Shown here one piece after another: positions 25,627 through 37,469 of a stretch of DNA of 64,000 nt; the first letter of the stretch is position 1; the number at the start of each line of letters is the position of its first letter. The notes beneath the pieces are model-generated. The model saw only the letters and a program-made list of their open reading frames with translations. It did no database searches and had not been told where the DNA came from. The position numbers and the translations under genes were made by a program. The DNA is from an uncultured Planctomycetaceae bacterium (GTDB taxonomy: Bacteria; Planctomycetota; Planctomycetia; Planctomycetales; Planctomycetaceae). The stretch spans positions 1 through 64,000 of the forward strand of contig CAITYU010000333.1 of the NCBI GenBank assembly GCA_903896675.1, given 5' to 3'.

Positions 25627-26538
25627 ATGTCTTCGGTCAAATCCGGCGGAAGTTCGCGATTGCGAATGCCGCAGATCAAGCTGACCAGGTATGAGGTCGC
25701 TATTTCTGTGCTGCAGACCTCCGGATTAATTGCGATCCTGACATTCCTCGTCATGCTGATGATCTGGTTGTCCAATCTGCTGCCCGCTCCGATTTCCAAA
25801 AAAGTCGAACTGATGCCGGCGGGGGATGGTGGCTGGGAGGACGGTAGTCCTGACGCCACGCCAAACGTGGAATCTCCTGAGGACGCTGTGCCGGACCCGT
25901 CGATGGCCAACGAGGAAACTGACGTTACTCAACTGGAAGAGGTGCTCGAGCAGGTTGTGGAGATCGCCGAGAACGCGGCCGTCATCGAAGCTCCCAATGA
26001 AAATCGTGACCGTAACACATCAGGCATTCCCGGCAGTGCCGATGGCACGGGTGGCCGACCGTTGGGCAGTGGTGGTCCTGGACGTGGCGGTGCGAAGCGT
26101 GAGCAGGGCTGGATTGTGGAGTTTGCCGACAAGGGTGATCTCGACAGCTACGCCGCTCAGCTGGATTTCTTCGGCATCGAACTGGGTTTGCTGGAGAAAG
26201 AGGATTCACGACTGACATATCTCAGTAATGTCAGTCGTCCGGTACCCACCAAACGGGAAGTGCGCACCGGAGATGCGGAAAAACGTCTGTTTTTGAAATG
26301 GCAGGATGGCAGCCAGGATCGGATTAAGGCGGACATGGAGTTATTTCAGCGCGCCAGCGTGGACGGCAGCAACGGAATAATCATGCATTTTTACCCTCAG
26401 GCGACAGAGCAGATGCTGGCGCAGCTCGAGGTTGCCTACGGCAATCAGCAGCCGACAGCCATCCGTCGTACATATTTTCGTGTCCGCAAGGCGGGCAGTG
26501 GCTACGAGTTTGTCGTGGATCGTCAGGTTCTGAAATAG
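25627..26538 (+). CDS. Single-pass membrane protein of unknown function, TonB-like topology
   Basis: A 303-residue protein with no recognised family. Residues 1-22 are basic and cytoplasmic, 29-52 form one membrane span (TSGLIAILTFLVMLMIWLSNLL), 60-135 are acidic with a Pro/Glu/Val linker, 136-160 are Gly-rich (GTGGRPLGSGGPGRGG), and about 165-303 form a globular domain (EQGWIVEFADKGDLDSYAAQ, IMHFYPQATEQMLAQLEVAY). This layout resembles TonB or TolA, whose partner is ExbB/ExbD, and ExbB follows 19 bases later. There is no detectable TonB sequence motif, so the comparison is topological. AGAGGA at 25614-25619 supports the ATG. It is the first gene of the operon. Confidence 0.75.
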   Translation: MSSVKSGGSSRLRMPQIKLTRYEVAISVLQTSGLIAILTFLVMLMIWLSNLLPAPISKKVELMPAGDGGWEDGSPDATPNVESPEDAVPDPSMANEETDVTQLEEVLEQVVEIAENAAVIEAPNENRDRNTSGIPGSADGTGGRPLGSGGPGRGGAKREQGWIVEFADKGDLDSYAAQLDFFGIELGLLEKEDSRLTYLSNVSRPVPTKREVRTGDAEKRLFLKWQDGSQDRIKADMELFQRASVDGSNGIIMHFYPQATEQMLAQLEVAYGNQQPTAIRRTYFRVRKAGSGYEFVVDRQVLK

Positions 26539-26557
26539 TCGCGAAGTGGATTCAGCT

Positions 26558-27286
26558 ATGACAAGTGTTTCTGAATTGATCAGTTTCATCGGGATCCTCG
26601 CTCAGGATGCTGCGGCCGCTCCGGCGGCTGGACCATCCACATTCATGAAGATCATCGAAAACTCGATCTGGGCCGGTATTGCCGCCTGTGCGGCGGGTGG
26701 CATGTACGCGGGACTGCTGCTGGTGCGACGAGTCAAGCAGAAGCAATTCCCGGGTGCAGCATCCGAACAGGCATTTCTGACCGAACTCACGGAATGCCTC
26801 GAACGCCGTGATTTTGATGCAGCGCTCCAGGTGTGCGATAATCCGGCACTCTGGAACAAAGCGCTTGCACAACTTGCCGCCATCGCGATTCAGGCCAGGG
26901 ACCTGCCGATGAAGAAGATCCGCCAGATGGTTGGCGAACGCTTTGAACGCGACATCCTTGGCAACCTCGATCGCACCAACGCATGGGTGGGCACCAGCAT
27001 AAAAACTGCCCCGCAGCTGGGACTGCTGGGAACGGTTCTGGGGATGATTAATGCCTTTGCCAAGATTGCTGGCGCTGCAGCCACGGGTGTCGACCCCAAG
27101 GAACTTTCCGCAGACATCAGCTTTGCACTCTGGACAACCGCAGCAGGCATGGCTATTTCGATTCCGCTCATTGTCATTCAGGGATCTGCCTCCAACGGCA
27201 TCAAGAAACTGCAGGAGAACATCGACGAAGGAACAGGCACGTTTCTGGACAGCCTTGCTGAAGCCAAGGCCAGGGCCGGCGGCTGA
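26558..27286 (+). CDS. MotA/TolQ/ExbB-type proton channel subunit
   Basis: A 242-residue inner-membrane protein that forms the pentameric stator of proton-driven motors. Three membrane spans are visible: NSIWAGIAACAAGGMYAGLLLV, the TAPQLGLLGTVLGMINAF helix (the classic ExbB/TolQ second span), and ALWTTAAGMAISIPLIVI. Between spans 1 and 2 lies a cytoplasmic loop of roughly 100 residues. ATG 26558 is chosen over GTG 26546. The ExbD gene follows 65 bases later and a second ExbD domain is in the kinase gene after it. Confidence 0.92.
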   Translation: MTSVSELISFIGILAQDAAAAPAAGPSTFMKIIENSIWAGIAACAAGGMYAGLLLVRRVKQKQFPGAASEQAFLTELTECLERRDFDAALQVCDNPALWNKALAQLAAIAIQARDLPMKKIRQMVGERFERDILGNLDRTNAWVGTSIKTAPQLGLLGTVLGMINAFAKIAGAAATGVDPKELSADISFALWTTAAGMAISIPLIVIQGSASNGIKKLQENIDEGTGTFLDSLAEAKARAGG

Positions 27287-27351
27287 TATTCACTGGCACT
27301 CGGTTCAGGCTTTTCAGGATTCCGGCATCCCGTCAGTGACAGAGCAGAATC

Positions 27352-27807
27352 ATGGCAGCAGAAGAGGAAGACGACACACCATATCAGAAGAAGTCGCGGC
27401 CACCCGAAGACACAGAGATTGACATTACGCCAATGATCGATGTGACCTTTCAGCTGCTGATCTTTTTCATGGTGACATCCACGATGCAGGGCAACCCGCC
27501 GGCAATCGTGCCCAGATCCATGTCCGGGGGATCCACGGAACTCGCAAAAGTCGCATTCAAGCTCGTCATCAAGGCACCTGTCGAAAAGAACACGGACCCC
27601 GTGATGGAAATCGACAAAAAGCCCATCACGATGGAAGAACTTCGTGCCCGACTGAACGAGGAAGCCGGTGCTCGCCCAAACGGCATCGATCTGATGATCA
27701 TGGGAGATCGTGCGGTACCCAACCGATTCACAGGTGAAATCGAAACCATGATCTCGGAAATACCCAACGTCGGGTTTCACTACGCCGTTCAGGACCGTCG
27801 GGAATAA
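27352..27807 (+). CDS. ExbD/TolR-type proton channel subunit
   Basis: A 151-residue ExbD. An N-terminal charged cytoplasmic stretch precedes one span, [20 protein letters not shown], containing the proton-carrying Asp at residue 30. The periplasmic domain (MEIDKKPITMEELRARLNEE, NGIDLMIMGDRAVPN) is complete. ExbD dimers rotate inside the ExbB pentamer and transfer proton-motive force to a partner. The next gene carries another ExbD domain with a nearly identical span, so the two could form a heterodimer. Confidence 0.93.
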   Translation: MAAEEEDDTPYQKKSRPPEDTEIDITPMIDVTFQLLIFFMVTSTMQGNPPAIVPRSMSGGSTELAKVAFKLVIKAPVEKNTDPVMEIDKKPITMEELRARLNEEAGARPNGIDLMIMGDRAVPNRFTGEIETMISEIPNVGFHYAVQDRRE

Positions 27808-27884
27808 ATCGCAATGCCGATTGATCGGCGATATCAGCGGGGTCAGCAGAGAACAGCCGGAACACACTTGAGATTCCCAGTGCC

Positions 27885-29396
27885 ATGAGTGATCTGACGG
27901 ACAAAAAACTTGGTGAATTCCACCTGCTGCGACCGCTGGGCAGCGGCGGCATGGCCGAAGTCTATCTGGCCGAGCAGACATCGCTGCAGCGCTACGTCGC
28001 CGTGAAGGTAATGAAACCGGCTCTGATGGCACATTCCGGTCAGGACATGCTGGCCAGGTTCAAGCAGGAAGCCATGATGGCAGCCGGCCTGAATCATCCG
28101 AACATCGTGCAGGTGTACACGATCGGGGAAGAGCAGGGCCTGCACTACATTGCTCAGGAGTTCGTGCAGGGCAGCGACCTGGCAACACTGATGCGGGAAC
28201 GCGGCAAACTGGATCTGGCATCCGTTCTCCATGTCATGCGACAGGTCGCTGCGGCTCTCAAGGCTTCCGGTCGGGCCGGGATCGTGCATCGCGACATCAA
28301 ACCGGAGAATATCCTCGTAACAAAAAAGGGCGAGGTGAAGGTGGCCGACTTCGGCCTCGCACAACTCGGCGAAAACACCGAAGGCAGAGAGGGCGTGACG
28401 ATGGGCACGCCACTGTACATGAGCCCCGAGCAGGTCAGCGGCAGGGAACTTGACCCCCGCTCAGATATTTACTCATTCGGAGTCACCTGCTACCAACTGT
28501 TGTGCGGAGAACCCCCGTTCCGTGGCACGACGGCCGTGCAGATTGCCATGCAGCACCTGAAAAACCCACCGCCACCGCTGCATGAACGCAACCCGCAACT
28601 CCCCAAGACCCTGTGTCGCCTCGTGCATCGCATGATGGCCAAGCGTCGCGGTCTGCGATATCAGTCGGCCGATGAAGTTTCAGAAGATATCAAAACCCTC
28701 ATCGCCGCCCAGAAGCAGGGGCGATCGCTGGACCTCGTTCGGTTACCCCGCCTCGAGGAACTCGAGCGGCTGGCGGAGCAGGAGCGGCAGCAGCACCAGC
28801 GAAATCAGCATCAGCAATCCGCAGATGGGCTGGACGACGGCGGAGACCTGCCGTTCGAAACATCTGCCGGTTCACAGACGGCTCCCGAGCCTGTCAGGGC
28901 CAAACCGGAACGACCAAAACCGGTGGCTCCGGTACCCGTCGCAGCAGATGATGACGACGATCCGCCGCCCCGCAGGCCACGCACGGAAGACAGTGCCGCA
29001 ATTGACCTCACGCCAGCCGTGGACGTGACCTTTCAGCTGCTGATTTTCTTCATGGTAACGGCATCCTTCAGTATGCAGAAAGCCTTTGACGTACCGCCGG
29101 CCAAAAATACCGATGGCGTTTCTGCGGCCGTTGTGGTGCCTCAGGAGTCCGAAACGTCGGCCGTCAAAGTGCAGGTGGATGCGGACAATGCCATGTACGT
29201 CGAGGAAACCAAAAAAGCCATCACGTTCAGAGAACTGCTGGAGCTGCTGAAACAGGAAAAGGGCTCAAGTTCGGATGTGACAGATGTGGAACTGGAACTG
29301 CATCCGGACTCCACACACGAGGCTCGGGTTATCGTCATTGACGCAGCAACTCAGGCAGGTTTTACGCGAGTCAGAAACAGAATTGTTGAGTGGTAG
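27885..29396 (+). CDS. Serine/threonine protein kinase fused to a C-terminal ExbD domain
   Basis: A 503-residue two-part protein. Residues 11-275 are a complete Hanks-type kinase: P-loop LGSGGMAEV (18-26), catalytic Lys41, Glu62, HRDIKPEN with Asp137, DFG at 155-157, and SPE at 180-182. All key residues are present, so it should be active. A charged Gln/Arg coiled region and Pro-rich linker run about 285-368. Residues 372-503 are an ExbD domain: [20 protein letters not shown] with the proton-relay Asp380, then a periplasmic domain with the usual [25 protein letters not shown]. In planctomycetes kinases usually end in a single span plus sensor domains; here the span belongs to ExbD. Topology fits: kinase inside, ExbD outside. 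No frameshift is visible at the junction. Confidence 0.93.
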
Positions 29397-29486
29397 CAGC
29401 AGGCCCGCCACCAGCGGGACCGGCTGGCAGAAATCCTCTGCCGGATCGAACAGCCAATACGGGAAAAATACTGACGGGATAAGACT

Positions 29487-32400
29487 GTGGCAGACAAATC
29501 TTCTGACAAATCTGAATTCGACCCGGAAGCAGACCGGCAGCAACTGGCTGAAAAAGCGAAACAGCAGCTGCAGCGTGGTCGACTTTCCGCGTTTTCCGAT
29601 CGCCTCACGGGTGGGCCGGTCAGAAATGAAGATCAGAAAATCTCCCGCTCCCCGGCAGTGCTTCTGCTGACGGGGACCACGATTGTCTGCTTCCTGCTGG
29701 CCGGTATCTTCTGGTTCATCAATCAGAGGAACGTCGAAGAACGCCTGCTGAAGGACGCCCAAACATTCCTTGAACAGCAGAAATACCTCGACGCCGAAGC
29801 GCGATTCGTGCAGTTCATCGCACAATACCCGAAGACGGAATCGACGGCTGCTGCCCGCATCGGCCTCCATCGCACTCGAGTCGAAAAGTTTATCCTCACT
29901 GATACCCCGGACGTCATCAAGGGCATGGCCGAGTTCAGAGAGCTGGAGTCTGAGTGTCGTGAACTGCCCGGATTCAGTGAGCTGCAGGATACGCTTCGGC
30001 GTTACACTGATCGACTGGCCTACGCCGGCGCTGTTGTCGCTGAAGTCACGCAGTCCGAAGAAGCTCTTGTCGTCAGCCGGGAAGCCCTCGACCTGCTGCA
30101 GCGGTATTCTCCGGATGGCGTACCAGCATCACGGCTCCAGCGCCTGACGGAACGACAGCGAGTGGCTGAAGGAGCGATTGCTCGTAAACTGACCTTTCAG
30201 GCCACATCCGAAAAAATCAGCAGCCTGCTGCAGGCTGGCGACACTGCCGGCGCCATCAGGACTCGCGAAGAGCTGATTCAGCGATTTCCGACTCTGGCGG
30301 AAGACAAGGACGTCCTGAAGATGCTGACGGACATCCTGAACCGTGAGAAGGAACTGGTGGTTCGCACGGATCTCGCACGGGATGCGATTCCCGCTGATCC
30401 GGCCCTCGAACAACTCCCCGCACTGACGCCGGCGCTTCGCACGCAGGCCGCTTCGGATCTGACATCACAGAACCGTTTTGTGGTGACCTGCGGCCGAGAC
30501 TCCTGCTGGTCGGTGGATGCTGACACAGGAGATCCGCGCTGGCGACGAGTCATCGGTACAGGCGCACCGTTTGCTCCCCTGCCTGTGGACGGCTCACGAC
30601 GCGGCGTACTGGTCTACAGCACGCAGTTCGAACAACTGCAGATGCTGGCAGAAGATACCGGAGAGGTGCTGTGGCGACAGTCCATCGAAGCCCGCCCATC
30701 AGCTCCGCCAGTCATCGCGGGCGGTACCGTATTCATCACAACGGACAACAATGAACTCTGGCAGGTCGCTGCAGATTCCGGTCGAGCCCTTGCAAAGCTG
30801 AAATTCCCGCAGGCCATCACCGGCCCTCCGGCTTTCTCCGGCGATGGTCAGGTGCTGATCATCCCCGGCAACCAGATCATGGTTTACACCATCAGCCTGA
30901 ACCCTTTTGGCTGTCTTGCCGCATCCCGTATTCCGCACGGACCGGGCAGCGTTCGCGTGCCGATTGCGTCGGCCGGAAATTACTTTCTGATGTGTGACAA
31001 TCAGACGACAGCAAAGGCCCGTATTCAGACACTGCGGCTGGAACCATCCGGACAGGTAACCGTGATTGCAGAAAATCCGGTGGATGGGCAGGTCCAGGAT
31101 CCCATGCTGCTGCGTGGCTATGAACTTTTCGTGCCCTCGACGCCGCAGCGAGTCACAGCATTCCGGGTCAGCGATGAACCCGGACAGCCTCCACTGTCTC
31201 CGGTCGGGGCAAATCAACTGGAGGACGGCCTCCAGACTCGCATGTTTCTGATGGCCGGTCCAGGCGGTCAGGTCTGGCTGGGTGGTCGGGATCTGAGAAA
31301 ATTCCGTACGCTGGCCAACGCAGTCGAACTGGAATCAGGACTAACGGCGGAGGGCGTGCACACGCAGCCGATTCGCCTGCTTGAGGATTCGGCATTCCTG
31401 ACCACGCGAACTTCCGTCTCCGACTCGACTTTCTTCACGCGTGCTGATCGTGAACAGATGCAGGGGATCTGGCGGACCGCGATTGGTTCCCGCATTGTGG
31501 CCACGGCGCCATCAGCGGGTGGTGAGTCGCTGCTGGCCATTACCGATTATGGCGAATCCTACCGTGTTCCGTTTGCCGAACTGAAGCGGCAGAGCTTCCT
31601 GCTGGAATCGGTCAGCCGCTTTCGCCTGCCGGACAAGCTGGCATCGACGATCAACGGATTCGTGCTCAACGATGGCCGCCCGGCCGCGTGGTCCGGACTC
31701 CCCGAACCTCTGATGTGGACCTTTACAACTACGGGGCAGTTGGAGCAGCGGTGGACATTGCCGGGCGTTCCGGAAGTGCCGCCCGTCGCGATCAACGCGG
31801 GAGCTGTTTATGCGGTCCCCGGCAAACTGCACCTCACCGGCCTTTCCGAAGGTCGCACCGCCGAGGACTACCTGTCTGCCCAGACGCAGGATCGGCAGCA
31901 GCCATGGAAAGCACTTGTGGCCATTTCCGGTACGCAGGTGCTGGCAGTGACGGCCGGTAATGAATTTGTTCGAGTCGAATATCGGGACACACCGCGACCG
32001 CAACTGGCGGAACTGAGCGTCGTGAAATTCCCGCACACAATTGAAGTGGCTCCCTCGGCCGCCAATGGATACCTCTTCGCTGCAACGACCGATGGACGAC
32101 TGCTGATGATGCAGGCATCCAGCCTTGAAATTCTCGCTGAAGCACAACTCGGAGGTGTCCCCAGCGCATCACCAAAGGTCGCCGGACAGGTGGTCATTGT
32201 GGAGGTCGCCGGACAGGCCGCTAAGGTCTTTCGAATTCAGGGCGGACTGGCGCCGGCATCCGAACTGCAACTGGCTGGCTTCGGAATTGCCGGAAACCCA
32301 CTGGCGGTGGATGACGGAGTACTGGTCGCTCGCACGGATGGCATGCTCACAAAACTTGATACAGCCGGGGTTCCAACCGGAGCTTCGATGTCCGTAGGCC

Positions 32401-32498
32401 AGGCGGTGCAGTCCGGTCTGGTCCGCTTCGGCAATCAGATCGTGATCACCGGCATGGACGGCAGCTTTTACGCAATTGATCCGGCACTCAGGCGATAA
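29487..32498 (+). CDS. Membrane-anchored TPR-like plus PQQ-type beta-propeller protein
   Basis: A 1003-residue protein. The first 55 residues are cytoplasmic, followed by one membrane span (SPAVLLLTGTTIVCFLLAGIFWF, about 54-76). Residues about 80-300 are helical and TPR-like (AQTFLEQQKYLDAEARFVQF). From about 330 to the end come PQQ/WD-like blade repeats (CGRDSCWSVDADTGDPRWR, MLAEDTGEVLWRQSIEA, ITTDNNELWQVAADSGRALA), a BamB-like propeller used for protein binding rather than PQQ catalysis. It should face the periplasm. Start is GTG 29487. The gene sits 90 bases after the kinase-ExbD fusion, in the same run of + strand genes. Confidence 0.82.
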   Translation: MADKSSDKSEFDPEADRQQLAEKAKQQLQRGRLSAFSDRLTGGPVRNEDQKISRSPAVLLLTGTTIVCFLLAGIFWFINQRNVEERLLKDAQTFLEQQKYLDAEARFVQFIAQYPKTESTAAARIGLHRTRVEKFILTDTPDVIKGMAEFRELESECRELPGFSELQDTLRRYTDRLAYAGAVVAEVTQSEEALVVSREALDLLQRYSPDGVPASRLQRLTERQRVAEGAIARKLTFQATSEKISSLLQAGDTAGAIRTREELIQRFPTLAEDKDVLKMLTDILNREKELVVRTDLARDAIPADPALEQLPALTPALRTQAASDLTSQNRFVVTCGRDSCWSVDADTGDPRWRRVIGTGAPFAPLPVDGSRRGVLVYSTQFEQLQMLAEDTGEVLWRQSIEARPSAPPVIAGGTVFITTDNNELWQVAADSGRALAKLKFPQAITGPPAFSGDGQVLIIPGNQIMVYTISLNPFGCLAASRIPHGPGSVRVPIASAGNYFLMCDNQTTAKARIQTLRLEPSGQVTVIAENPVDGQVQDPMLLRGYELFVPSTPQRVTAFRVSDEPGQPPLSPVGANQLEDGLQTRMFLMAGPGGQVWLGGRDLRKFRTLANAVELESGLTAEGVHTQPIRLLEDSAFLTTRTSVSDSTFFTRADREQMQGIWRTAIGSRIVATAPSAGGESLLAITDYGESYRVPFAELKRQSFLLESVSRFRLPDKLASTINGFVLNDGRPAAWSGLPEPLMWTFTTTGQLEQRWTLPGVPEVPPVAINAGAVYAVPGKLHLTGLSEGRTAEDYLSAQTQDRQQPWKALVAISGTQVLAVTAGNEFVRVEYRDTPRPQLAELSVVKFPHTIEVAPSAANGYLFAATTDGRLLMMQASSLEILAEAQLGGVPSASPKVAGQVVIVEVAGQAAKVFRIQGGLAPASELQLAGFGIAGNPLAVDDGVLVARTDGMLTKLDTAGVPTGASMSVGQAVQSGLVRFGNQIVITGMDGSFYAIDPALRR

Positions 32499-32513
32499 CG
32501 CGGGTTTGTGTTC

Positions 32514-35084
32514 ATGAAACTCAGATTCCTTCAGTTCCCCGAAATTCGTGGCGCAGCAACACATTGGCTTAAAACCATGGTGGTTGTCCTGCTGATGCTG
32601 TGCAGCGCTGCGGTCAGTGGCGACGAATCAGTCGGACGAACCGAACTGCCGAAGCTTTCCGAAATGCCGTTGCCCACAGCCGAGGCACTGTTGCGCGCGG
32701 ATCTTGACGACAGAGAGTTTGACTGGGTTGTGCTGAAGGCCGGCACACCGGAAGACCGGCGAGTTGTGGTCGTCAATCCTCTCGATTCAAGACCCGACAT
32801 CCTTGGAAAACAGGATGCAGAATACAAAAAACTGGAGGCCTCAAGGCCACAGAATCAAAAGGAACGCGAGGCTCGGACAAAGCGTCTGAAAAGCCTGAAG
32901 AAACTGATGTTCACGCTGCCCGGCGATCTGACTGAGTACGCCGTTCCTGTCGAACAGGTCGATCAGATCCTGTACTTCGAGGATCTGATGCTGCTGGTGG
33001 TCGACCAGTTGCTTGAGAAAGCGGATTACCGCACATCCTATGAATTGCTGCTGCGAGTCGAGACAGAACTGCCAGGCTGGGAAAAATCAGTTCCTCGATT
33101 CGAGCGACTGCTGCTGAGCGAAGCGGCAACGCGGGCTGCCGCCGGAGAAATCTATGCGGCGCTGGCTCTGCTTGATCAGGTCTTTCAGCGAAATCCGCAA
33201 AGCACTGAACTGCCCACCCGATTGGGTGAACTGGTCCGGCCGATGATCAGTGATGCAGTGGGCAAAGAGGATTTTCGCAAGGCCCGCTACCTGATCGATC
33301 GAGTCCGCCGGCTGTTTCCGCAGCATGAAGTGGCCGTTGCGGCACAGACCGAACTGCAGACACTCAGCCAGACCCTGCTGGACAAAGCCACGGCCAGCAG
33401 CCAGCAGAAACAGCATGCCGAAGCCGCTGAACTGGCTCGCCGTGCCGAAGCGGTCTGGCCCACAGCAGGAAATGGTCGTGCCACATTCACTCAGCTGTTT
33501 GCCAGACACCAGGTCCTGCGAGTCGGCATCAACGACCCGCAGGGCCCCTTCATTCACCCGGCTCCACTGGAGTCGGACGAGCGACTGCAGGAGCTGGGGC
33601 AGGTCAGTCTGTTTGAGCCTTCTTCAGCCGACGAACTGACGTATTTTCGCTCTGGCTTTTTCGAGGTCTGGGATCCCACGGATCTTGGTCGGGAAGTCGT
33701 GTTCACACTGCGTGAAACAAAACCGTCGTGGCAGACACAGCCACTGCTGACAGCCAACCAGGTCGCCGAATCGATTGCTCAGCGAATCGACATCGCTCAC
33801 CCGCTTTACAGTTCGCGGCTGGCCTCCTTCGTTTCAGAGATCTCCGTCAGATCTCCGTCGCAACTGAGACTTCGATTTTCCCGAGTCCCGCTGAGCATCG
33901 AATCTCTGCTGAGATTTCCGGCAACCCGCAGTGTCCCACCAGGTGGTGACGAGGCTGCTGCTGCATCGGCCAGCGGAACAACCGCTGTCATCGCCACGCG
34001 TTTTCAGCAAAAGACTGCGGCCGGAAATGCAACATCCTGGCTCAGGGGTGTTCCTGAGCCCGATGGGCTGGACGCCGGCAAATATCATGTCGCCGAAATT
34101 CAGGAACAGCGATTTGATGACCGAAATCGCATGATTCAGGCCTTCAACCGCGGCGACATCGATTACATCCCGAAGCTGCTTCCGTGGGAGGTGGACGCCT
34201 TCCTGGCATCAGATTTTCAGGTGAAGAAATACGCACTACCCATGACGCACGTGCTGATCTTCAACCCCCGTTCGGAACGTATCACAAACGCTCAGACACG
34301 CCGTGCACTGTCCTTCGCAATCAATCGCGAAGGCATCCTGCGTTCCACAATCCTGCGGGATGAATCAATGAAGCATGGCCGACCGACAAGTGCCGCATGG
34401 CACCTGCGCAGCTATGCCACGGAACCTCGTGAGCCGGCACCACGATTCAACCTGCGACTGGCTTACGCCCTCCGGTTCGCCGCCGAACAGCAGTTGAGAA
34501 TCGCCGAGCTGATGAAACTGACGGAGGCTGCAAAGGAAAAGGCGCGGGTTGACAAAATCAATTTTGACCCCGAACAGTTCCGCAGGAACACCAAAGTCGA
34601 CTACGTCAAACTCCCGCGCCTGCGATTTGTGGTCGAACCTGGTGAAGTGCCCAAAGCTGCAGCCGAACGCCTGCTGAGCTACTGGACCCGAATCGGTTTC
34701 GAAATCGACGTGATTCAGGGCGATCAGCCCGGAATGCCACTCTCAGACTCTGACTGGGACTTCTGCTATCGACAGGTACGGATGGAAGAACCACTGCTGG
34801 AACTCTGGCCGGTCCTCGCAAATGACACGACTTTTGATATGTCACGACTGGGACTGTATCCCGACTGGATGCGCCAGGAGCTGGTGGGCCTGGACTATGC
34901 CTCCAGTTTCCTCGATGCCCAGGAAAAACTGTTCACGATTCATCGACATATCGCTGCTCAGGCCTTCCTGATCCCGCTCTGGGAAGTTGATGAGTACGCA
35001 GTGCTGCGAAAGAACGTTTCCGGGACACCGGCTCAACTGATGTCGGTCTACCACAACGCAGAGCGATGGATGATCAAGCCATGA
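32514..35084 (+). CDS. Exported TPR-like domain fused to family 5 solute-binding protein
   Basis: An 856-residue protein with a signal peptide (LKTMVVVLLMLCSAAVSGDES). Residues about 40-325 are helical with TPR-like pairs (AAGEIYAALALLDQVFQRNP, AAELARRAEAVWPTAGNG). From about 335 it matches dipeptide/nickel-type SBP_bac_5 proteins: LLTANQVAESIAQRI, RITNAQTRRALSFAINREGIL and SDSDWDFCYRQVRMEEPLLELWP. Such proteins normally deliver peptides to an ABC importer, but no permease or ATPase gene is in this window. ATG 32514 is chosen; a GTG two codons earlier is possible. The stop overlaps the next start (ATGA), so translation is coupled. Confidence 0.85.
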   Translation: MKLRFLQFPEIRGAATHWLKTMVVVLLMLCSAAVSGDESVGRTELPKLSEMPLPTAEALLRADLDDREFDWVVLKAGTPEDRRVVVVNPLDSRPDILGKQDAEYKKLEASRPQNQKEREARTKRLKSLKKLMFTLPGDLTEYAVPVEQVDQILYFEDLMLLVVDQLLEKADYRTSYELLLRVETELPGWEKSVPRFERLLLSEAATRAAAGEIYAALALLDQVFQRNPQSTELPTRLGELVRPMISDAVGKEDFRKARYLIDRVRRLFPQHEVAVAAQTELQTLSQTLLDKATASSQQKQHAEAAELARRAEAVWPTAGNGRATFTQLFARHQVLRVGINDPQGPFIHPAPLESDERLQELGQVSLFEPSSADELTYFRSGFFEVWDPTDLGREVVFTLRETKPSWQTQPLLTANQVAESIAQRIDIAHPLYSSRLASFVSEISVRSPSQLRLRFSRVPLSIESLLRFPATRSVPPGGDEAAAASASGTTAVIATRFQQKTAAGNATSWLRGVPEPDGLDAGKYHVAEIQEQRFDDRNRMIQAFNRGDIDYIPKLLPWEVDAFLASDFQVKKYALPMTHVLIFNPRSERITNAQTRRALSFAINREGILRSTILRDESMKHGRPTSAAWHLRSYATEPREPAPRFNLRLAYALRFAAEQQLRIAELMKLTEAAKEKARVDKINFDPEQFRRNTKVDYVKLPRLRFVVEPGEVPKAAAERLLSYWTRIGFEIDVIQGDQPGMPLSDSDWDFCYRQVRMEEPLLELWPVLANDTTFDMSRLGLYPDWMRQELVGLDYASSFLDAQEKLFTIHRHIAAQAFLIPLWEVDEYAVLRKNVSGTPAQLMSVYHNAERWMIKP

Positions 35085-36742
35085 GAACAGCTGTAATCTG
35101 CCTGATGCTGTCAAGTGTGCTTCCCGAAGCACTGCTGTTTGCCCAGCAGACTTCGCCGAATGCAACAGCCGGTTCCGTCGCCCAGGCGGATGCACCCGCA
35201 CCGGCACCCACCGCTGCTCCGACACCCCCCCCGGTTGACCGGACACCGTTTCAGCAGCGCCCCTATCGTGTCACCGTGGAAGTTGGTTTCAGTGGCCCAG
35301 ACGCCGTCGATCCTCAACTGCGGACCGAAATTGTGCGGCAGATTCGCGACGGGTTTGATCGCCTGTACGGGGCAATGTGGATCACCAGTGTGCTTGAATC
35401 CTCGTGGTTCGTGCCCGGCAGCAGAGAATCCCTTGAACGCCTCGATGCGCCGCAACTGGAGAGCCGGTATGTCGAAAGCGAAACCGAAAAAGCCCTGCTG
35501 ATCGCAGTGGAATGCGACCGTGATGGGTTTACCGTCAGTTGTCGTGAACACGATGTTCGCATTCAGGAGCTGACACCCGTGATTACACGTACCGTCTTCA
35601 CTGCAGACGCTGCGGCACATGCTGCCTGCGAGCTGGGGCGCGACAGCTTTAGGCCCATCCTTCTGTACACATCACAGACACTGGACAAAACCGAACTGGA
35701 ATTCGTGGTGCAGGCTGGCTTGATCACCCCACCGGATCCCAGTGCTGCCCAACTGCGGGAGGGCGACGTGCTCCGCACATTCCTGCGACAGATGGACCGA
35801 AAAAATCCCGGCAAGGTAAAACTCCTGCAGAGACTTGATCTCTGTTATGTTCGCATCACCGGATTCAACGATGTGCTGGGCAGTGGCGGACTGTCAGCAG
35901 ACGAACAGCCGGTGCGGGTTGAAGGCGTGGATACCCAGCCATCACAGGGCTGGCAGGACACCAGCCGAGCGCGTGGAGTCCTGCTTTCACACGGCCTCGT
36001 ACCATTCGGAACCAAAGGGCGCAACCTGCAGCAGATCGGCGTACGCCAACGCCCCATTGCAGCCTCCAGTCGCGTGCGAATGGTGCTGCAGAACCGACCG
36101 GATCGACCGCTGATCTGCCTGCGAGTGGACCAGGTCGCAAAGCTCCGACAGACTGATGTCAGTGCCCAACCACCGGTTCGGGTACTGACGGATCGCAGGG
36201 GCGAACTCACCCTGCAGACCGATCCCAAAAATCCCACGTTCTGGCTCTACGCATACAGCGGCAGCACGCTGCTTGCTCGAGTTCCATATGCTCCGGGACT
36301 CACCCCCGTTGATACCGTGAAACTTCCTGATGACTCCATTCGCCTCGGCGTTGAGGGGGATCTGTATCTGCTGCGAGACGAACTTGTGGATATGGTCGCC
36401 GAAAAAGCCGTCCATATGAGTCTTGCGAAAAAGGCGTCTGAAGCGAAAAACGGCGAGGGTTTTCTGGAGGCTGTTGCAGCCATGAATACCCTGCCCGGTG
36501 ACGAAGCCTTCGGCCTGAAGCTGAATGAAATCCGGGCTCCGGCCATTGATCGCGCCGACAAAGCCAAAAATTCCGCTGCAAAACGTCGCATTGAATCTCT
36601 GATTGGCAGAATGTCAGACTCCCTCGTGAAATACTTTGCTCCGGAGAAACGGGTGGCTGAAGCCGACGAACTGCTGAAACTGCGTCGAGCCGCCGGATTG
36701 CCGGATGAAGCCCCTGCCGGAAGTTCGGGCAGCGGCCGCTGA
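35081..36742 (+). CDS. Exported protein of unknown function, last gene of the ExbBD-kinase operon
   Basis: A 553-residue protein with a signal peptide (MRTAVICLMLSSVLPEALLFAQQ) followed by an Ala/Pro/Thr-rich linker (about 28-55). The rest is a mixed alpha/beta protein without a recognised domain; it contains repeated beta-rich stretches (YRVTVEVGFSGPDAV, RPLICLRVDQVAKLRQ, RRGELTLQTDPKNPTFWLYA). An ending Ala/Lys-rich helix (SAAKRRIESLIGRM) precedes a Gly/Ser tail. ATG 35081 overlaps the stop of the solute-binding protein by 4 bases, so they are co-translated and their products may interact in the periplasm. Confidence 0.75.
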   Translation: MRTAVICLMLSSVLPEALLFAQQTSPNATAGSVAQADAPAPAPTAAPTPPPVDRTPFQQRPYRVTVEVGFSGPDAVDPQLRTEIVRQIRDGFDRLYGAMWITSVLESSWFVPGSRESLERLDAPQLESRYVESETEKALLIAVECDRDGFTVSCREHDVRIQELTPVITRTVFTADAAAHAACELGRDSFRPILLYTSQTLDKTELEFVVQAGLITPPDPSAAQLREGDVLRTFLRQMDRKNPGKVKLLQRLDLCYVRITGFNDVLGSGGLSADEQPVRVEGVDTQPSQGWQDTSRARGVLLSHGLVPFGTKGRNLQQIGVRQRPIAASSRVRMVLQNRPDRPLICLRVDQVAKLRQTDVSAQPPVRVLTDRRGELTLQTDPKNPTFWLYAYSGSTLLARVPYAPGLTPVDTVKLPDDSIRLGVEGDLYLLRDELVDMVAEKAVHMSLAKKASEAKNGEGFLEAVAAMNTLPGDEAFGLKLNEIRAPAIDRADKAKNSAAKRRIESLIGRMSDSLVKYFAPEKRVAEADELLKLRRAAGLPDEAPAGSSGSGR

Positions 36743-36752
36743 GACATCCAGC

Positions 36753-37469
36753 ATGCAGGTCATCTACGAGGATAATCACCTGCTTGTGATCAGCAAGCCG
36801 GCGGGACTGGCCACCATGGGGGCATTGCCTGGTATCCCCACAGCACTGGAGCTGGCACGCAACGATATCGCGCACCGCTACAGAAAACCGGGAGCCGTGT
36901 ATCTGGGGGTGGTCAGCCGACTGGACTCAGCCGTCACTGGAGTCCTTATCTTCGCTCGAACGTCAAAGGCCGCAGCCCGCCTCAGCGCACAGTTCCGGGA
37001 ACGTTTGATTCGCAAGACTTACATCGCCCTGACGTCACGGACTCCGCAAAAGTCGGCCGAACGTGTTGACTGCTGGCTGCGACGAGATGATGACAGACAT
37101 CTCACAGTACCCGCGGCTGCGAATTCAGCCGGCGCCCAGCACAGCAGCCTCGACTACCGCTTACTGGGGCAGGGTGACGGAAAGTCTTTGCTGGAAATCA
37201 CACCGCACACGGGGCGAAAGCACCAGATCCGTGCTCAACTGCAAGCGCTCAAAATACCCATCGTCGGAGACAGAAAATATGGCAGTGACACAACTTTTCC
37301 ATCCGGAATTGCCCTGCATGCGCTCAGCCTGCAGTTTAAACATCCAGTCCTGCCGGAACTTCTGCACATTTCTGCCCCGCCTCCGAGCCCCTGGCCGACA
37401 TGGACCAGCGATCTGCTGAAGGACATTTATCCTAAGGACGCTGTCAGACGCCTACCGCTTCCAGATTGA
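36753..37469 (+). CDS. RluA-family pseudouridine synthase
   Basis: A 238-residue enzyme that isomerises uridine in rRNA or tRNA. It begins MQVIYEDNHLLVISKPAGL, the normal catalytic-domain start, contains the active-site loop VSRLDSAVTGVLIFA with the catalytic Asp at residue 58, and LEITPHTGRKHQIRAQL. No S4 RNA-binding domain is present, which suggests an RluA/RluC-minimal or TruC-like form. An in-frame ATG at 36705 would overlap the upstream gene. The 3' end overlaps the convergent sigma factor gene by 26 bases. Confidence 0.9.
   Translation: MQVIYEDNHLLVISKPAGLATMGALPGIPTALELARNDIAHRYRKPGAVYLGVVSRLDSAVTGVLIFARTSKAAARLSAQFRERLIRKTYIALTSRTPQKSAERVDCWLRRDDDRHLTVPAAANSAGAQHSSLDYRLLGQGDGKSLLEITPHTGRKHQIRAQLQALKIPIVGDRKYGSDTTFPSGIALHALSLQFKHPVLPELLHISAPPPSPWPTWTSDLLKDIYPKDAVRRLPLPD

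What the first reader, a model, noticed from the sequence alone, without database searches (positions are those of the whole stretch)
25627..36742. Seven-gene operon combining a proton motor, kinase and large periplasmic proteins: candidate new envelope system
Tight same-strand genes encode TonB-like protein, ExbB, ExbD, kinase-ExbD, a TPR/PQQ propeller, a TPR/solute-binding fusion and an unknown exported protein. The last two overlap by ATGA. This is not a TonB, Tol-Pal or Mot locus: it has no TonB-dependent receptor, Pal or OmpA-like peptidoglycan binder. Inference: a force- or energy-sensing signalling system in which the motor drives or reads periplasmic proteins and reports to the cytoplasm by phosphorylation.
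Basis: partly seen in the sequence, partly recalled or inferred. Interest (0 to 1): 0.88.

Follow-up and report, generated by a model that had tools for sequence, protein, structure and literature searches.

The report
Class-wide planctomycete envelope motor with kinase
These seven adjacent genes encode an unstudied proton-driven machine across the cell envelope that most sampled genomes of one planctomycete class keep, usually together, and in one branch a protein kinase is fused to the motor's central axle; it probably does a Tol-like envelope job, but no function has been tested.

Summary
The seven genes are real, adjacent and same-strand, and not a chance cluster. Of 76 tallied loci in the window's class, 47 carry all seven in order; the 29 partial ones are never out of order. 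The last gene (g7) was found in 83 of 98 class genomes; the first (g1) in 52 of 392 phylum genomes, all 52 in this class. Motor residues are conserved. The g7 N-terminus folds like TolB domain 1/FlgT. TolB_N was found in 0 of 98 class genomes, and 58 of 83 g7-bearing genomes lack any TonB-receptor plug domain. Best reading: a proton-driven trans-envelope machine that works like Tol-Pal but is not Tol-Pal. The kinase is a later addition (24 loci, probably one clade); elsewhere g4 usually has a zinc-ribbon-like N-terminus and g5 often an FHA-like domain, never together with the kinase. So signalling is not the core function, but a kinase on a motor axle is unusual and testable. No description was found in the papers searched. 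Function is inferred.

The parts
25627..26538 (+). g1: membrane-anchored periplasmic protein (TM helix about 21-51, disordered linker, folded C-terminal domain about 158-303); TonB/TolA-like topology only
   Evidence: family found in 52 of 392 phylum genomes, all 52 in the class
26546..27286 (+). g2: ExbB/TolQ/MotA-type pentamer subunit; Thr163 and Thr198 (alignment numbering of the tool) invariant in 17 rows
27352..27807 (+). g3: ExbD/TolR-type axle subunit with the TPMIDV motif
27885..29396 (+). g4: Ser/Thr kinase (residues 12-260) joined by a linker to an ExbD axle and periplasmic domain (368-496)
29487..32498 (+). g5: short cytoplasmic tail, TM helix, weak TPR region, PQQ/BamB-type beta-propeller region
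32508..35084 (+). g6: signal peptide-like N-terminus (by eye), weak TPR region, SBP_bac_5 (oligopeptide-binding type) domain
   Evidence: no PDB sequence match at E <= 0.01
35081..36742 (+). g7: exported protein; FlgT/TolB-domain-1-like N-terminal fold, Cna-B/transthyretin-like sandwich about 333-421, C-terminal helices 424-542 (numbering from the 35066 start). ATG at 35081 overlaps the g6 stop (ATGA)
36705..37469 (+). RluA-type pseudouridine synthase; neighbour, not part of the system (next to g7 in 7 fetched same-genus loci, not found in 5 others)

Best explanation
A class-specific, proton-driven trans-envelope machine that works like Tol-Pal. Five g2 and two axle subunits (g3 and/or g4) form an ExbBD-type motor in the inner membrane. 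Its motion or force is passed by g1 and by membrane-anchored g5 to periplasmic g6 and g7 at the wall or outer membrane, to maintain or remodel the envelope. In the window's lineage a Ser/Thr kinase sits on the cytoplasmic end of one axle subunit, where it can either report motor state or set it by phosphorylating motor parts. Shown by sequence: the gene set, its conservation, intact motor residues, intact kinase motifs. Inferred: the 5:2 assembly, force transfer, the outer-membrane target, and any link between motor and kinase.
For: Conserved order: 47 of 76 tallied loci complete, none out of order. In the overlap, g1 and g7 lie on one strand within 13 kb in 37 of 43 genomes. Where the unit is split, the motor half g2-g3-g4 was found elsewhere in 10 of 10 such genomes whose best motor region I fetched (7 of family f2, 2 of f4, and G025). 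ExbD Asp invariant in 19 rows, ExbB Thr residues invariant in 17 rows, aligned to ExbB/TolQ and ExbD/TolR structures. The g7 N-terminal domain resembles two known periplasmic partners of such motors: FlgT (Foldseek E 6.3e-7) and TolB (2.5e-5); TolB 7mx5 Z 9.0, rmsd 3.0, 113 aligned; FlgT 3w1e Z 8.2, rmsd 9.9, 200 aligned. The g5 propeller region matches BamB entries. g7 in 83 of 98, TolB_N in 0 of 98 class genomes; 58 of 83 g7-bearing genomes have no Plug domain.
Against: The g7 fold is shared with unrelated periplasmic proteins (PelC, PqiC, LpoB, CT253), Z near 9 is only moderate by the tool's own note, and the FlgT superposition is loose. No sequence match of g7 to a PDB chain (only a chance-level hit). 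g1 lacks the SHLS His reported for TolA/TonB and its C-terminal domain found no PDB fold with Z >= 5. No Pal in the locus. 15 of 98 class genomes gave no g7 match, 12 of them in family f3. TPR calls are sub-threshold. No expression or phenotype data.
Confidence: 0.55

Rival explanations
1. An energised uptake or import system: the motor drives uptake of peptides or macromolecules into the periplasm, with g6 (oligopeptide-binding-type domain) capturing the cargo.
For: SBP_bac_5 in g6 over cut-off, kept with the motor throughout; ExbBD motors power TonB uptake (established knowledge).
Against: No TonB-receptor Plug domain in the window's genome nor in 58 of 83 g7-bearing class genomes; no ABC permease or outer-membrane barrel among the seven.
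Confidence: 0.17
2. A sensing system: periplasmic g5-g7 and the motor read force, proton motive force or cell-wall peptides and set kinase activity.
For: Kinase fused to the axle with intact catalytic motifs; FHA over the Pfam cut-off in 6 of 6 FHA-like g5 N-termini scanned; the g5 propeller also matches the propeller of a solved bacterial membrane kinase (7eq5).
Against: Kinase in only 24 of 76 tallied loci, probably one origin; FHA domains mostly lack phosphothreonine-binding residues and also match the YscD cytoplasmic domain, which points to a scaffold role; two further g5 N-termini scanned have neither.
Confidence: 0.18
3. A surface motor for gliding or secretion, like AglRQS or GldLM, moving surface proteins through g7.
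For: Weak match of g5 to the gliding TPR protein GltE profile (17.8 bits, cut-off 225); two different axle proteins, as in AglQ/AglS (PMC9389320, passages seen).
Against: No adhesin or secretion genes among the seven; no sequence match to GldL or GldM models among the hits listed.
Confidence: 0.07

Closest known systems
Tol-Pal (TolQ-TolR-TolA-TolB-Pal-CpoB)
   Same: Same motor family; single-TM transducer-like g1; beta-propeller (g5), weak TPR (g5, g6) and a TolB-domain-1-like fold (g7) in one operon-like unit
   Different: No TolB_N match in 98 class genomes; no Pal in the unit; no SHLS His in g1; domains spread over different proteins; extra SBP domain and second axle subunit
vWA force-transducer loci of the PVC group (PMC12204202, section 8 read)
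   Same: tolQ-like gene, two different tolR-like genes, TPR gene, single-TM transducer
   Different: No vWA domain in any of the seven proteins; that section mentions no kinase, PQQ propeller, SBP or FlgT-like protein
TonB-ExbB-ExbD
   Same: ExbB and ExbD homologues and a single-TM periplasmic protein
   Different: No TonB family hit; no Plug domain in the window's genome
FlgT / flagellar H-ring with PomAB-type stators
   Same: Periplasmic protein of similar fold paired with an ion-driven motor of this family
   Different: No flagellar genes among the seven; g7 adds a beta-sandwich and a helical C-terminus; no sequence relationship found
Membrane Hanks-type kinases (PknB; the PQQ-propeller kinase of 7eq5)
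   Same: N-terminal cytoplasmic kinase, one TM helix, periplasmic domain
   Different: The TM and periplasmic part is an ExbD motor axle, not PASTA or propeller; the PknB_PASTA model scores 342.7 against a cut-off of 450

Membership tests
5:2 ion-driven motors (ExbBD/TolQR/MotAB) | ExbB/TolQ subunit with conserved pore Thr residues | tested here: met
   MotA_ExbB 67.9 bits; Thr163 and Thr198 invariant in 17 rows, aligned to ExbB/TolQ. The Glu of the ExbB GIAEAL stretch is not kept (window: DISFAL)
5:2 ion-driven motors (ExbBD/TolQR/MotAB) | ExbD/TolR axle with proton-binding Asp | tested here: met
   Asp invariant in 19 g4 rows, aligned to the ExbD Asp; g3 has TPMIDV
5:2 ion-driven motors (ExbBD/TolQR/MotAB) | Pentamer around a dimer, proton-driven motion | not testable with these tools
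   needs purification and cryo-EM
Tol-Pal | TolB with TolB_N domain | tested here: not met
   PF04052 in 0 of 98 class genomes, own included; controls ring
Tol-Pal | TolB-domain-1-like fold in a periplasmic partner | tested here: inconclusive
   g7 64-228 resembles TolB D1, Z up to 9.0, but the fold is shared with PelC, PqiC, FlgT
Tol-Pal | Pal/OmpA peptidoglycan-binding lipoprotein in the operon | tested here: not met
   none among the seven; one OmpA-domain protein elsewhere in the genome
TonB/TolA transducers | TM helix with SHLS His | tested here: not met
   no His inside the TM stretch of 23 g1 rows, read by eye; one row has a His at its periplasmic end
TonB/TolA transducers | TonB/TolA C-terminal fold | tested here: inconclusive
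   no PDB chain with Z >= 5 for the g1 model
TonB system | TonB-dependent receptors in the genome | tested here: not met
   PF07715 0 hits in own genome, about 95% complete; absent from 58 of 83 g7-bearing class genomes
vWA force-transducer loci | vWA C-terminal domain on the transducer | tested here: not met
   no vWA family for any of the seven
Hanks-type kinases | Gly-loop, Lys, HRD and DFG motifs | tested here: met
   all present in the window; HRDxKP[ED]N in 22 of 23 and DFG in 23 of 23 fused kinases, one row being cut by a contig end
FHA phospho-readers (g5 of other lineages) | phosphothreonine-binding Arg and Ser | tested here: not met
   Arg after the conserved Gly in 8 of 25, Ser three before His in 1 of 25 rows (read by eye; motif recalled)

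The most novel reading that the evidence does not exclude
A protein kinase built into the axle of a proton-driven membrane motor: motor motion or proton motive force directly controls the kinase, so the cell reads mechanical load or energy at the envelope through phosphorylation. The rest of the unit is a previously undescribed class-wide counterpart of Tol-Pal.
Probability: 0.25. Interest if true: 0.92.

Novelty: new variant of a known kind. Interest (0 to 1): 0.74.

Why it matters
Planctomycetes have unusual envelopes, and how this class maintains its outer membrane without a detectable TolB is open. A near-universal, usually syntenic motor unit is a concrete candidate and can be knocked out. 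The kinase-ExbD fusion gives a direct handle on whether such a motor's state can be read by a cytoplasmic enzyme.

Tried and rejected
Tried and led nowhere: sequence search of g6, g7 and g1 against PDB chains gave no relative; g1 fold search gave nothing with Z >= 5; promoter and terminator scans were near the shuffled level (promoters 2 against a mean of 4.4, terminators 17 against 14.7), so no transcript boundary could be inferred.

Rejected: 'kinase fusion arose twice'. The 65-row LG+G4 tree needed 2 changes, but 37 of those rows under the mixture model put all 13 kinase rows on one side of a branch (support 84, not starred), so one origin is preferred, not shown. Rejected: FHA as a working phospho-reader. 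Rejected: RluA as part of the system. Rejected: chance adjacency.

Rows dropped before counts: duplicates L077 (contig length equal to that of L048) and L092 (equal to that of L056); L170 (only an ExbD matched); 62 of the 80 loci, which are other ExbD loci. Of the 44 non-own genomes with a g7 hit, 40 were fetched. L038 counts as a kinase locus although a frame break separates its kinase and ExbD (24 = 23 + L038). The tree used 37 of the 65 rows.

Not found in print: searches (open-licence PMC only). Of papers I saw: PMC12204202 passages and section 8; passages of PMC2754498, PMC8567305, PMC11032199, PMC9389320; otherwise search listings. One possibly relevant 2020 paper cited in PMC8567305 (Mahajan et al. 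2020b; new planctomycete protein families including biopolymer transport complexes) is not held under the DOI that I recalled for it, so prior description there is not excluded.

Full report
1. Observation. The window is part of contig C333 of a 5.9 Mb, 95% complete genome, whose relatives are planctomycetes (titles). The seven ORFs are present at 25627-36742 on +. Pfam puts MotA_ExbB in g2, ExbD in g3, Pkinase plus ExbD in g4, PQQ_2 in g5 and SBP_bac_5 in g6 over cut-off, and nothing in g1 and g7; the TPR matches are below cut-off. g7 can start at 35081, giving the ATGA overlap with the g6 stop. In loci with all seven genes the median ORF spacing g5-g6 and g6-g7 is -4.

2. Conservation. The g7 protein matched 45 of 59 relatives. 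I fetched 40 of the 44 non-own genomes with a hit, then 20 more regions seeded on g4, and a scan of named genomes gave 18 further loci with the system among 80 returned, including Roseiconus nitratireducens, a Schlesneria, a Blastopirellula and a Thermoguttaceae MAG. After dropping two duplicates and one locus with only an ExbD, 76 loci including the window were tallied: 47 hold g1-g7 in order on one strand, 29 are partial (some cut by contig ends), none is out of order. In families f2 and f4 and in G025 the unit is split; in all 10 such genomes fetched, a separate g2-g3-g4 set was found. By profile, g1 is in 52 of 392 phylum genomes, all 52 in the window's class; g7 is in 83 of 98 class genomes. 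In the 43 genomes with both, 37 have g1 and g7 on one strand within 13 kb.

3. Motor. The axle Asp is invariant in 19 g4 rows and aligns with ExbD and TolR of solved structures. In g2 the Thr residues of LGLLGTV and ALxTTA are invariant in 17 rows and align with ExbB and TolQ; the Glu of the ExbB GIAEAL stretch is not kept.

4. g1 and g7. The g1 model is confident only for the TM helix and residues 158-303; no PDB chain reaches Z 5. It lacks a His in the TM stretch, unlike the SHLS motif described for TolA/TonB (PMC12204202; alignment). The g7 model (mean pLDDT 77.8) has an N-terminal part that Foldseek ranks closest to FlgT (E 6.3e-7) and TolB (2.5e-5). VIA-align gives TolB 7mx5 Z 9.0, rmsd 3.0, 113 residues, and FlgT 3w1e Z 8.2, rmsd 9.9, 200 residues. 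The same fold occurs in PelC, PqiC and other periplasmic proteins, so this is a lead, not proof. A Cna-B/transthyretin-like sandwich (3e8v Z 9.4) and helices follow.

5. Not TonB, not Tol-Pal. The window's genome has no Plug domain, no TolB_N and one OmpA-domain protein on another contig. In the class sample TolB_N is in 0 of 98 and Plug in 27 of 98; of 83 genomes with g7, 58 have no Plug. The unit therefore cannot mainly serve TonB receptors, and it is a candidate for the envelope task done elsewhere by Tol-Pal. That last step is inference.

6. The kinase. g4 carries a kinase in 24 of 76 loci (23 called by profile, plus L038 where a frame break splits kinase and ExbD). Where g4 was callable and has no kinase, 33 of 37 have a CxxC...CxxC N-terminus (zinc-ribbon matches below cut-off in the two scanned). 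g5 begins with an FHA-like domain in 25 loci (over the Pfam cut-off in 6 of 6 scanned). None of the 59 loci where both N-termini could be called has kinase and FHA together. A 65-row tree under LG+G4 needs two changes for the kinase; a 37-row tree under the mixture model makes it one side of a branch, support 84, not starred. Kinase catalytic motifs are intact. The FHA domains mostly lack the residues that bind phosphothreonine and also match the YscD cytoplasmic domain, so a scaffold role is as likely as reading phosphates.

7. Mechanism. Most likely proton flow through g2 around the g3/g4 axle drives g1 and g5, which act on g6 and g7 at the wall or outer membrane. In the kinase lineage the axle's cytoplasmic end carries a kinase on a linker of about 100 residues; because such axles are dimers, assembly would bring kinases together, and motor state could change their activity. 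Shown: genes, conservation, residues. Inferred: assembly, force, target, coupling.

8. Novelty. No description was found in nine full-text searches of an open-licence library; one possibly relevant 2020 paper could not be read. The nearest published kind seen is the vWA force-transducer locus (PMC12204202 section 8), which shares the tolQ plus two tolR plus TPR layout but has a vWA domain that none of these seven proteins has. A weak physiological lead: R. [quoted passage not shown] whether they belong to this unit was not tested.

Noticed in passing
L038:4538-6054: In the window's closest sampled relative in the tree (G007) a frame break in the linker separates the kinase ORF (354 aa) from the ExbD ORF; sequencing error or real splitting not resolved.
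   Followed up: partly
L041:1216-2145; L158:1165-2118; L159:1-846: A second, divergent g1 paralogue sits next to g1 in three fetched loci, which may mean two transducers on one motor.
   Followed up: no
L170 (G481:C3:11200-26200): A g4-like ExbD domain lies at the end of an ORF of at least 1650 aa (open frame 2326 aa) with no other g1-g7 gene found nearby.
   Followed up: no
L067:2971-4377, L069:3031-4437, L071:11975-13369, L054:13098-14669: A separate Ser/Thr kinase gene lies convergent just beyond g7 in several loci without the fusion. Planctomycetes have many kinases, so chance was not excluded.
   Followed up: partly
L177:7861-8754 and L184:7470-8531: In two families the g4 ExbD has longer N-termini with weak GYF_2 matches below cut-off, another swap of the axle's cytoplasmic module.
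   Followed up: partly
L067:8305-11709, L071:4890-8228, L075:9050-12556: g5 starts with a different N-terminal module, unmatched over cut-off in the two scanned (L067, L075), in place of the FHA-like domain.
   Followed up: partly
L188:7583-10473 (own genome, C333): Another ExbD gene in the window's genome is followed by an 816-aa protein with only weak SQHop_cyclase_C/TED matches.
   Followed up: partly
window 26546-27286: The Glu of the ExbB GIAEAL stretch is not kept in g2 (DISFAL and variants in the 17 rows), a departure from ExbB/TolQ.
   Followed up: partly
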